Of a stretch of DNA of 64,000 nucleotides, positions 7,870 through 52,734 are shown piece after piece. Location of the stretch: NCBI GenBank assembly GCA_020062545.1, contig JAGUWD010000028.1:1-64000 (forward strand), written 5' to 3'. Position numbers and translations under genes: made by a program. Position 1 is the stretch's first letter, and the number at the start of each line of letters is the position of its first letter. The DNA is from Thermodesulfovibrionales bacterium. GTDB lineage: Bacteria > Nitrospirota > Thermodesulfovibrionia > Thermodesulfovibrionales > Dissulfurispiraceae. The notes below the pieces were generated by a model. The model did not search any database. It was not told the origin of the DNA and worked only from the letters and a program-made list of their open reading frames with translations.

Positions 7870-7959
7870 TGGCGGAGGGGGAGGGATTCGAACCCTCGGT
7901 GGAGTTGCCCCCACAACGATTTTCGAGACCGTCCCATTCAACCACTCTGGCACCCCTCC
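7870..7959 (-). tRNA. tRNA-Ser (anticodon CGA)
   Basis: A 90-base tRNA with an encoded CCA end. The 7-bp acceptor stem GGAGGGG pairs with CCCCTCC. The seven-base anticodon loop CTCGAAA gives anticodon CGA, reading UCG. A long variable arm (GTGGGGGCAACTCCAC) is typical of class II tRNA-Ser, and the T-loop is GGTTCGAATCC. All four arms can be drawn by hand. Confidence 0.95.
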
Positions 7960-50768: not shown

Positions 50769-50806
50769 TTGACAAAAGGGAAATTATGGTGTATAGTTTT
50801 CCATAA
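50769..50806 (+). promoter_or_regulatory. Strong promoter with overlapping inverted repeat
   Basis: TTGACA (50769-50774), a 17-base spacer and TATAGT (50792-50797) lie just before the HTH gene. A perfect inverted repeat TTATGG (50784-50789) and CCATAA (50801-50806) straddles the -10 box. It could be an operator for the HTH protein encoded directly downstream (AGGAG at 50808, ATG at 50818). Confidence 0.75.
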
Positions 50807-50817
50807 AAGGAGAAAGG

Positions 50818-51363
50818 ATGCTTAAAAGCTTATTCTCATCATCCATACGAGCCGATGTTCTGGCGCTGTTATTGAACAGCCCTGAAGAAAAATTCTACGT
50901 AAGAGAGATCGCAAGGCTCTTAAGAAAAAACCCTTCGGGAGTAAAAAGGGAACTCGACAAACTGGAAGAGATGGGACTCGTAATAAGCGAAAAGGTTGCA
51001 AACCTCAAATACTTTCATGCAGACAAGAATTCCCCCCTGTTTTCGGAATTAAAAGACCTCATAGCAAAATCACTCGGACTTCCCGGCGCCTTGAAGAGCC
51101 TTTTAAGGGCGAATGATATAAAGTCAGCATTTATCTACGGTCCGTATGCCGAAGGAGAAGAAACCCCAACCGTTAACCTGATAGTAATCGGCTCGTTCAC
51201 CCCTGCGCTCCTGGTTGGTTTACACGACATCGAAAAAAAATTCGGCAAAAGGATAAATTGCACCGTAATCGAAGAGGCAGAATATAAGCACAAAAAGCAG
51301 AAGGATGCCGCCTTAAAACGTATCCTTGCAGAAAAAAGGATTACTCTGCTGGGAAGAGTTTAA
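50818..51363 (+). CDS. Winged-helix protein fused to a degenerate nucleotidyltransferase domain
   Basis: A 181-residue protein. The N-terminal winged helix (about 8-65) has REIARLLRKNPSGVKRELDKLEEMGLV. The C-terminal domain (about 95-180) aligns by eye with MNT-type nucleotidyltransferases, but the signature is lost: GPYAEGE replaces GS-x3-GE, and VNLIVIG replaces the D-x-D strand. The domain therefore probably binds rather than transfers. Likely autoregulation through the promoter palindrome. Two lysine-rich microproteins follow before the terminator. Confidence 0.8.
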   Translation: MLKSLFSSSIRADVLALLLNSPEEKFYVREIARLLRKNPSGVKRELDKLEEMGLVISEKVANLKYFHADKNSPLFSELKDLIAKSLGLPGALKSLLRANDIKSAFIYGPYAEGEETPTVNLIVIGSFTPALLVGLHDIEKKFGKRINCTVIEEAEYKHKKQKDAALKRILAEKRITLLGRV

Positions 51364-51432
51364 CCTTTTAAAAAGTTCCCTTGGAGATATTTCTTTTAAG
51401 GTCTTCGAGGGACGGGAAAGGAGGTGAACTTA

Positions 51433-51498
51433 ATGGCAACAGCAAAGAAGGCAGCAGCAAAGAAGGCTCCGGCAAAAAAGGCAGCAAAGAAGAAATAA
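51433..51498 (+). CDS. Lysine/alanine-rich microprotein 1 (histone H1-tail-like)
   Basis: A 21-residue ORF, MATAKKAAAKKAPAKKAAKKK-like: alternating Ala and Lys-Lys with one Pro. A perfect AAAGGAGGTGA Shine-Dalgarno lies six bases before the ATG, so strong translation is likely. The composition matches the tails of histone H1-like proteins, suggesting nucleic-acid binding. It sits 69 bases after the HTH gene and 44 bases before its near-copy. Confidence 0.7.
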   Translation: MATAKKAAAKKAPAKKAAKKK

Positions 51499-51542
51499 CA
51501 ACGGTTTTAAAGGTATTTTAAGACCGAAAGGAGGTGAACTTA

Positions 51543-51623
51543 ATGGCAACAGCAAAGAAGGCAGCAGCAAAGAAGGCTCCGGCAAAAAAGACTGCAGCAA
51601 AGAAGACTGCAAAGAAGAAATAA
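51543..51623 (+). CDS. Lysine/alanine-rich microprotein 2
   Basis: A 26-residue near-duplicate of the previous gene, with the same first 16 residues and then TAAKKTAKKK. A 65-bp stretch from the Shine-Dalgarno to codon 16 is identical in both copies (51416-51480 and 51526-51590, offset 110 bp), so this is a recent tandem duplication. A strong terminator follows 29 bases after the stop. Confidence 0.7.
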   Translation: MATAKKAAAKKAPAKKTAAKKTAKKK

Positions 51624-51651: not shown

Positions 51652-51719
51652 AGGGAATACCCAAAAGACAATTTTGTATTCGAGGAAACTGACTTTTTGG
51701 GTATTCCCTCTTTTTTTTT
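51652..51719 (+). terminator. Strong intrinsic terminator
   Basis: A 15-bp perfect stem (AGGGAATACCCAAAA at 51652-51666 pairing with 51695-51709), with a 28-base loop and then nine T residues at 51711-51719. It closes the HTH-microprotein unit and separates it from convergent lpxC. Confidence 0.9.
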
Positions 51720-51721
51720 GG

Positions 51722-52621
51722 TTAGCTATAGTTTAAAACATGGTGAGGCAAATGGTCAACTTCCGATGAGATAAGGCTGTAGGAGTCAATAGACGTTATC
51801 AGCTTCTTCAAGAAATTTATGTTAGCTGTATGGCCTGCCTTTTCAAGCATGATATGCCCCTGTATCGGGAACCCAATTAATGATAAATCTCCAATAGAAT
51901 CAAGCACTTTGTGCCTTACAAACTCATCCTCGAACCTTAAACCTGTAGCATTCAAAATACCGTCATCGCCTACAATCACGGCATTGTCGAGGGAGCCGCC
52001 CTTTGCAAGGCCGTTTGCTCTTAATTTCTCCACATCGCTCAGAAATCCGAAGGTTCTGGCAGGGGCTATCTCCTGTACAAAGGTTTTTTCATCGATGTTT
52101 ACAGTAAGTTCCTGCTGTCCCAGCATATGGTGTCCGAAATTTATACAGTAAGATATACGCATGCCATCATACGGCAGGGCTACAATCCTTGAGTGGGCAT
52201 CCTCATAAACAACAGGTTTGGTAATCTTTATAAAGGGCATCTTTTTACCCTGCTTTGCTATGCCTGCCTCAAGTATAATTCCGACCAGCTTTGTAGAACT
52301 CCCATCCAGTATGGGGATTTCAGGGCCGTCAACCTCTATAATAAGGTTGTCGATTCCGAGACCGGCTGCAGCAGCAAGCAGGTGCTCCACTGTCTTTACC
52401 TTCACCACATCCAAACCATTGACAAAGCCGATTGTGGTGGCAAAGGCCGTGTCAACAACAGAGGTAATATTTGCCCGTATTATTGCACCCCTGTCTACAC
52501 GGTAAAAGACTATACCTGTATCCCTGGAGGCAGGTTTTAGCTTCACCATTGCATACTTACCTGTATGCAGGCCGATACCGTGGAAGGTGATCTCTTTTTT
52601 AATTGTTCTCTGTAACCTCAT
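51722..52621 (-). CDS. lpxC: UDP-3-O-acyl-N-acetylglucosamine deacetylase
   Basis: A 299-residue zinc enzyme committing UDP-GlcNAc to lipid A. Zinc ligands are in TVEHLLAAAAGLGID and RHKVLDSIGDL (H, D). I start at the ATG at 52621, giving MRLQRTIKKEITFHGIGLH as in the family; an 18-residue upstream extension is not conserved. Presence of lpxC supports a lipopolysaccharide-bearing outer membrane. Confidence 0.95.
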   Translation of the reverse strand: MRLQRTIKKEITFHGIGLHTGKYAMVKLKPASRDTGIVFYRVDRGAIIRANITSVVDTAFATTIGFVNGLDVVKVKTVEHLLAAAAGLGIDNLIIEVDGPEIPILDGSSTKLVGIILEAGIAKQGKKMPFIKITKPVVYEDAHSRIVALPYDGMRISYCINFGHHMLGQQELTVNIDEKTFVQEIAPARTFGFLSDVEKLRANGLAKGGSLDNAVIVGDDGILNATGLRFEDEFVRHKVLDSIGDLSLIGFPIQGHIMLEKAGHTANINFLKKLITSIDSYSLISSEVDHLPHHVLNYS

Positions 52622-52734
52622 CGAGTTTTGAATATAAGCAAATAATGTGCCACCATAAAAACAGATATAAAACAAGTGGATATAAAATCAGGAGTGTTGA
52701 TTAATTTCGCTCGTGTGTAATATTTACCACACCT

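What the first reader, a model, noticed from the sequence alone, without database searches (positions are those of the whole stretch)
51416..51623. Tandem 21- and 26-residue Ala/Lys microproteins with perfect ribosome-binding sites
Two tiny ORFs, identical over 65 bp including AAAGGAGGTGA, encode AAKK-type peptides like histone H1 tails and lie before a strong terminator. They share a transcript with an HTH regulator driven by a near-consensus promoter. Such short genes are missed by standard annotation. High expression and a nucleoid or RNA-binding role are plausible.
Basis: partly seen in the sequence, partly recalled or inferred. Interest (0 to 1): 0.62.

Follow-up and report, generated by a model that had tools for sequence, protein, structure and literature searches.

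The report
Lysine-alanine microproteins paired with winged-helix genes
Two tiny, unannotated bacterial genes encode almost nothing but lysine and alanine, like the tail of a linker histone, and nearly every sampled bacterium of the phylum Nitrospirota that has one of two unrelated DNA-binding 'winged-helix' genes carries such a microprotein gene right behind it, so they are real conserved genes that probably help handle DNA.

Summary
Two ORFs of 21 and 26 aa (51433-51498, 51543-51623), identical over 65 bp, lie behind perfect 12-nt Shine-Dalgarno sequences, between a winged-helix gene and a terminator. The genome is a Nitrospirota (Thermodesulfovibrionales). They are real genes. Every HTH homologue examined with enough downstream DNA (170 loci, 144 distinct ones passing a strict filter) is followed by a Lys/Ala/Thr/Pro ORF of 13-127 aa, nearly always with a strong SD. 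GC3 of these ORFs follows the neighbouring gene (r=0.69), while Lys+Arg content does not (r=-0.10), so selection acts on the peptide. In other Nitrospirota lineages the same kind of ORF (from 12 aa) follows an unrelated winged-helix gene (HARE-HTH): 70 of 70 loci, often also convergent with lpxC. The two wHTH families never co-occur in one genome (153 vs 135 genomes, overlap 0). In some lineages a HEPN gene sits between HTH and microprotein. Best explanation: a free-standing, highly translated H1-tail-like polycation that binds nucleic acid together with a co-transcribed winged-helix protein. The conservation is shown; DNA binding and partnership are inferred. The 65-bp identity reflects recent gene conversion. 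No curated family or paper found describes them.

The parts
50769..50797 (+). sigma-70-like promoter, TTGACA-17-TATAGT, in front of the operon
   Evidence: 11 of 12 consensus matches; consensus match only
50818..51363 (+). winged-helix (ArsR-type) protein with degenerate MNT-like nucleotidyltransferase domain, 181 aa, net basic
   Evidence: Pfam HTH_5 27.8 bits vs cut-off 22; PADLOC PDC-M05A 4e-39; AF2 pLDDT 84, Foldseek SqrR and HEPN-MNT complex; pI 9.5
51375..51413 (+). predicted RNA hairpin just before the first SD
   Evidence: z -1.65; weak on its own
51416..51427 (+). Shine-Dalgarno GAAAGGAGGTGA of microprotein 1
   Evidence: one of 11 in the genome
51433..51498 (+). microprotein 1, MATAKKAAAKKAPAKKAAKKK, 21 aa, net charge +9
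   Evidence: conserved in relatives
51502..51526 (+). predicted RNA hairpin just before the second SD
   Evidence: z -3.66, 0 of 200 shuffles as stable
51526..51537 (+). Shine-Dalgarno GAAAGGAGGTGA of microprotein 2
51543..51623 (+). microprotein 2, MATAKKAAAKKAPAKKTAAKKTAKKK, 26 aa, net charge +11
   Evidence: 96% identical in G003, 88% in G002
51653..51720 (+). probable intrinsic terminator of the operon: GGGAATACCCAAAA / TTTTGGGTATTCCC stem, then T-tract
   Evidence: pair I1; fold z -3.2
51722..52675 (-). lpxC, convergent neighbour (synteny marker, not part of the operon)
   Evidence: Pfam LpxC 341 bits; convergent in 102 of 120 HTH loci and 49 of 67 HARE loci

Best explanation
The two ORFs are members of a family of ultra-short, presumably disordered polycations spread across much of Nitrospirota, made almost only of Lys, Ala, Thr and Pro in AAKK(A/P/T)-type units. 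They are the last cistrons of an operon headed by a winged-helix DNA-binding protein and have exceptionally strong SDs, so that many small peptides are probably made per winged-helix protein. Most likely they work as free-standing histone-H1-tail-like peptides: they bind the nucleic-acid backbone (most likely DNA) non-specifically, neutralise charge and compact or bridge it, while the co-expressed basic winged-helix protein supplies a structured DNA-binding module. Shown: gene reality, frame conservation, composition constraint, operon linkage with two unrelated wHTH families. Inferred: translation level, DNA binding, cooperation with the wHTH protein.
For: All 170 testable HTH loci carry the ORF. 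Composition K 46, A 33, T 12, P 4, V 2 percent and one acidic residue in 4720, held over GC3 0.21-0.97. An unrelated HARE-HTH gene occupies the same slot in 135 genomes with no overlap with the 153 HTH-NT genomes, and 70 of 70 such loci have the ORF (67 complete, 3 cut by N or contig end). SD pattern plus start in 121 of 390 genomes against 2 genomes with the reversed pattern. Both wHTH proteins are basic. The longest members resemble Hc2 (46.7 bits vs cut-off 40). Similar Lys/Ala/Pro tails bind DNA: AlgP KPAA peptides (PMC9239181) and Hc2 (PMC2848022).
Against: No expression, binding or phenotype data. A 12-21-aa polycation would bind any polyanion, so DNA specificity is not implied. No fusion of the microprotein with either wHTH protein was seen. 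A few genomes (G214, G369) have the ORF without a detected wHTH gene. Operon transcription rests on gene order and a consensus promoter.
Confidence: 0.55

Rival explanations
1. The peptide is a polycation for another polyanion (rRNA or ribosome, mRNA, or polyphosphate granules) rather than a DNA partner of the winged-helix protein.
For: Charge alone fits any polyanion; the H1-like AlgP sits on polyphosphate granules (PMC9239181) and Hc2 binds RNA (PMC2848022).
Against: Consistent linkage to two unrelated DNA-binding-type genes, not to polyphosphate or ribosome genes.
Confidence: 0.22
2. The operon is a defence or toxin-antitoxin module (HTH-NT with HEPN, PDC-M05-like) and the cationic microprotein is its toxin or effector.
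For: HTH protein matches PDC-M05A; a HEPN gene lies between HTH and microprotein in several lineages; PDC-M05 is described as nucleotidyltransferase plus HEPN (PMC12988326).
Against: Conserved chromosomal place next to lpxC over many families, unlike patchy mobile modules; HEPN lost in most loci while the microprotein stays; the microprotein also follows HARE-HTH genes with no NT or HEPN; NT motif degenerate.
Confidence: 0.08
3. The conserved thing is the RNA (hairpin, perfect SD and A/G-rich coding stretch) and the peptide is a by-product.
For: Hairpins often abut the SD: mean z -1.27 against -0.54 upstream of the HTH gene; a hairpin of at least 7 pairs next to the SD in 65% of loci against 49% of shuffles.
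Against: Third positions drift with genome GC while residues do not; length varies from 12 to 127 codons with frame and composition kept; nothing downstream to regulate, only a terminator and a convergent gene.
Confidence: 0.05

Closest known systems
Hc2-type histone H1-like proteins (PF07382; Chlamydia Hc2, Bordetella BpH1)
   Same: Lys/Ala/Thr/Pro pentamer-like units with two basic residues each, evenly spread charge, length variation by repeat number
   Different: Hc2 is 165-237 aa (PMC2848022); here mostly 12-30 aa, free-standing, in an operon with a winged-helix gene; the short forms do not reach the Pfam cut-off and the resemblance is compositional
AlgP/PhaF C-terminal KPAA tails of Pseudomonas
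   Same: H1-tail-like composition; peptides of this kind bind DNA (PMC9239181)
   Different: There the tail is fused to a helical domain; here it is a separate gene
Eukaryotic linker histone H1
   Same: Pairing of a winged-helix module with a Lys/Ala/Pro-rich tail
   Different: Two separate genes, unrelated winged-helix families, no evidence of homology; functional analogy only (H1 architecture from general knowledge)
PDC-M05 / HEPN-MNT systems
   Same: HTH-NT protein matches PDC-M05A; HEPN gene present in some lineages
   Different: No HEPN in the window or in most Thermodesulfovibrionia loci; degenerate nucleotidyltransferase motif; additional Lys/Ala microprotein

Membership tests
PF07382 HC2 histone H1-like | Pfam gathering score of 40 bits, window peptides | tested here: not met
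   21 aa: no match; 26 aa: 13.4 bits
PF07382 HC2 histone H1-like | Pfam gathering score of 40 bits, longest relatives | tested here: inconclusive
   108 aa 46.7 bits passes; 87 aa 37.6 and 59 aa 26.5 do not; 90 aa no match; low-complexity matches do not prove descent
PF07382 HC2 histone H1-like | binds DNA or RNA | not testable with these tools
   needs a binding assay
Linker histone H1 | winged-helix module and Lys-rich tail in one chain | tested here: not met
   separate ORFs; HTH-NT proteins are at most 190 aa without such a tail; every HARE locus examined has a separate ORF
PDC-M05 / HEPN-MNT | HTH-NT (M05A) protein | tested here: met
   PDLC04368 4.1e-39 over residues 3-180
PDC-M05 / HEPN-MNT | HEPN partner gene next to it | tested here: not met
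   next gene in the window is the microprotein; HEPN present only in other lineages
PDC-M05 / HEPN-MNT | active-site GS...DxD of the nucleotidyltransferase | tested here: not met
   YGPYAEGEETPTVNLIVIG in the window; degenerate across relatives, by reading the alignment
ArsR-type winged helix (upstream gene) | Pfam HTH_5 cut-off and wHTH fold | tested here: met
   27.8 bits vs 22; AF2 model matches SqrR

The most novel reading that the evidence does not exclude
A bacterial 'split linker histone': in much of Nitrospirota a winged-helix DNA-binding protein (two unrelated families used interchangeably) and a separately encoded, high-copy Lys/Ala tail peptide as short as 12 aa act together as the chromatin-compacting unit that eukaryotes build as one H1 protein.
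Probability: 0.25. Interest if true: 0.85.

Novelty: new variant of a known kind. Interest (0 to 1): 0.68.

Why it matters
It shows a conserved gene family spread across much of a phylum that standard annotation is likely to miss: most members are 12-30 codons and low complexity, and tryptic proteomics would shred them. The linkage to two unrelated winged-helix genes in the same slot gives a direct, testable handle on what minimal H1-tail-like peptides do in bacteria, and on whether a linker-histone-like activity can be split into separately encoded parts.

Tried and rejected
1) Chance or low-complexity artefact: rejected by conservation, the GC3 test and the specificity control. 2) Identical copies as evidence of function: rejected, G003 copy 1 differs; gene conversion. 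3) Leader peptide: rejected, nothing downstream on that strand but a terminator. 4) Known RNA element: only a tRNA at 7873-7959 reaches an Rfam gathering score in the window. 5) Pure toxin-antitoxin: see rivals. 6) Charge-neutralising partner of an acidic HTH protein: rejected, both wHTH proteins are basic. 7) Hairpin before the SD as a strong conserved element: only moderate against shuffles. 8) Papers: string searches found only unrelated Lys/Ala proteins or nothing; no paper on such microproteins in Nitrospirota surfaced.

Full report
Observation. The two ORFs are exactly as described. Microprotein 1 (51433-51498) is MATAKKAAAKKAPAKKAAKKK; microprotein 2 (51543-51623) is MATAKKAAAKKAPAKKTAAKKTAKKK. 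Each starts 5 nt after GAAAGGAGGTGA, a 12-nt match to the canonical anti-SD (general knowledge) that occurs 11 times in the 2.62-Mb genome and never in the reversed control. They are identical from the SD over 65 nt. A sigma-70-like promoter (11/12) precedes the HTH gene 50818-51363, no + strand promoter-like site lies between it and the microproteins, and a strong hairpin with a T-tract follows. A common transcript is therefore likely but not shown. lpxC lies convergent beyond it.

Host. HTH relatives in GTDB contigs carry Nitrospirota names or are unnamed uncultured records, and the genome's relatives share the locus. The window is from a Nitrospirota genome, order Thermodesulfovibrionales judging by those titles. 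Family labels f1, f2 and so on below are the tool's anonymous ones.

Conservation behind the HTH gene. All 56 GTDB loci of the HTH gene have a Lys/Ala-rich ORF (14-112 aa) shortly downstream, nearly all with a strong SD. HTH homologues occur in 153 of 395 Nitrospirota genomes sampled. Further loci agree. Of 171 loci examined (some are the same contig held twice), 163 pass a strict filter. The other eight are six that reach the end of the contig or of the fetched DNA (five of them showing a Lys-rich ORF beginning, one ending inside the HTH gene), one Lys-rich ORF with a GTG start (L130) and one with some Glu (L137). So no testable locus lacks it.

Peptide-level selection. In 144 distinct loci (4720 residues) composition is 46% K, 33% A, 12% T, 4% P, 2% V with one acidic residue; the filter helped to select this, but only two complete loci failed it. 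GC3 of the ORF ranges from 0.21 to 0.97 and correlates with GC3 of the HTH gene (r 0.69), while the Lys+Arg fraction does not (r -0.10). Both Lys codons and all four Ala codons are used. Length varies from 13 to 127 codons with frame kept. This is what selection on a repetitive basic peptide gives, not an RNA element. The same filter finds nothing else in the window, nor in 337 kb of related loci on both strands apart from second copies.

The partner is swapped. In genomes without the HTH gene I looked at the DNA convergent to lpxC. In f28, f29, f33, f34, f36, f38, f39, f41 and f43 a Lys/Ala ORF is there too, in most cases directly behind a different gene: a coiled coil plus HARE-HTH winged helix (Pfam 47 bits against a cut-off of 25.9). 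This gene occurs in 135 of 385 genomes, none of which is among the 153 with the HTH-NT gene (lists compared by eye). All 70 HARE loci examined have the Lys/Ala ORF downstream: 67 complete, three cut by N or contig end. Some are only 12 aa, many use TTG starts, and L341 has two tandem 12-aa copies. lpxC is the convergent neighbour in 102 of 120 HTH loci and 49 of 67 HARE loci with enough DNA. In f18, f23, f25, f26 and f31 a HEPN-like gene lies between HTH-NT and microprotein. Exceptions: G214 and G369 have the ORF next to lpxC without a detected wHTH gene. The sampled genomes of f3, f10, f22, f24, f27, f30 and f37 show no Lys/Ala ORF by the SD pattern or next to lpxC; one f3 genome (G335) has a weak HTH hit. 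The SD pattern would miss TTG starts and weaker SDs.

Tandem copies. In sister genome G003 copy 1 is MAAKKKAAAKKAPAKKATKKK with a different spacer, like copy 1 of L038 and L040, and its copy 2 resembles that of the window. The window's copy 1 has thus most likely been overwritten at its 5' part by copy 2: gene conversion. Two copies recur elsewhere (L112-L114, L324, L325, L341, L352).

The HTH protein. Pfam HTH_5 passes its cut-off; the AF2 model (pLDDT 84, pTM 0.55) shows an ArsR-like winged helix followed by an MNT-like domain. It matches PADLOC PDC-M05A at 4e-39, described as a nucleotidyltransferase paired with a HEPN protein (PMC12988326). The usual GS...DxD motif is degenerate. In the window this looks like a retired member of such a module kept as a basic DNA-binding protein; that reading is inference.

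Mechanism. The peptides are polycations (+9, +11) with H1-tail-like composition. Related tails bind DNA (AlgP KPAA peptides, PMC9239181; Hc2, PMC2848022). Retained linkage to two unrelated winged-helix proteins, both basic, with very strong SDs, suggests many tail peptides per winged-helix protein acting on nucleic acid. DNA binding, cooperation and abundance are inferred. Rivals (RNA or polyphosphate target, defence module, RNA element) are weighed in their own section.

Novelty. H1-like Lys/Ala proteins are known in bacteria. What is new, as far as the tools show, is a minimal free-standing form, conserved across much of a phylum in an operon with interchangeable winged-helix genes, with no passing Pfam or NCBIfam model for the short forms and no paper found. 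The paper library is partial, so absence there is weak evidence. Other phyla were not surveyed.

Noticed in passing
L149:2431-2610 (G000:C14:5430-5609): The same genome has a further, longer Lys/Ala protein (MAVAKKATAKKTAAKK..., 59 aa from the second Met) with SD AAGGAGGA, about 200 nt from a predicted tRNA-SeC gene on the other strand. HC2 score 26.5, below cut-off.
   Followed up: partly
L154:about 1500 (G000:C3:183508-183519): Another perfect GAAAGGAGGTGA precedes a 38-aa ORF MSDTKKDEKIGTLGNVVREIKTSGCGCGCGCAPEIKKK, a possible Cys-rich microprotein.
   Followed up: no
L112-L134: HTH-NT, HEPN-like and Lys/Ala microprotein genes in one cassette in other Nitrospirota lineages, with degenerate catalytic motifs in the nucleotidyltransferase.
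   Followed up: partly
L165, L189: The SD pattern search also returned an ORF that looks like gas-vesicle GvpA (MAVEK.[25 protein letters not shown]...) in G083 and G041; named by eye only.
   Followed up: no
L202 (G080, f14): Downstream of the HTH homologue an extended Lys/Ala/Pro protein begins MEEKKKKCGGKGMKKCGCSTETPEVKKPAEKK..., with a Cys-containing N-terminus.
   Followed up: no
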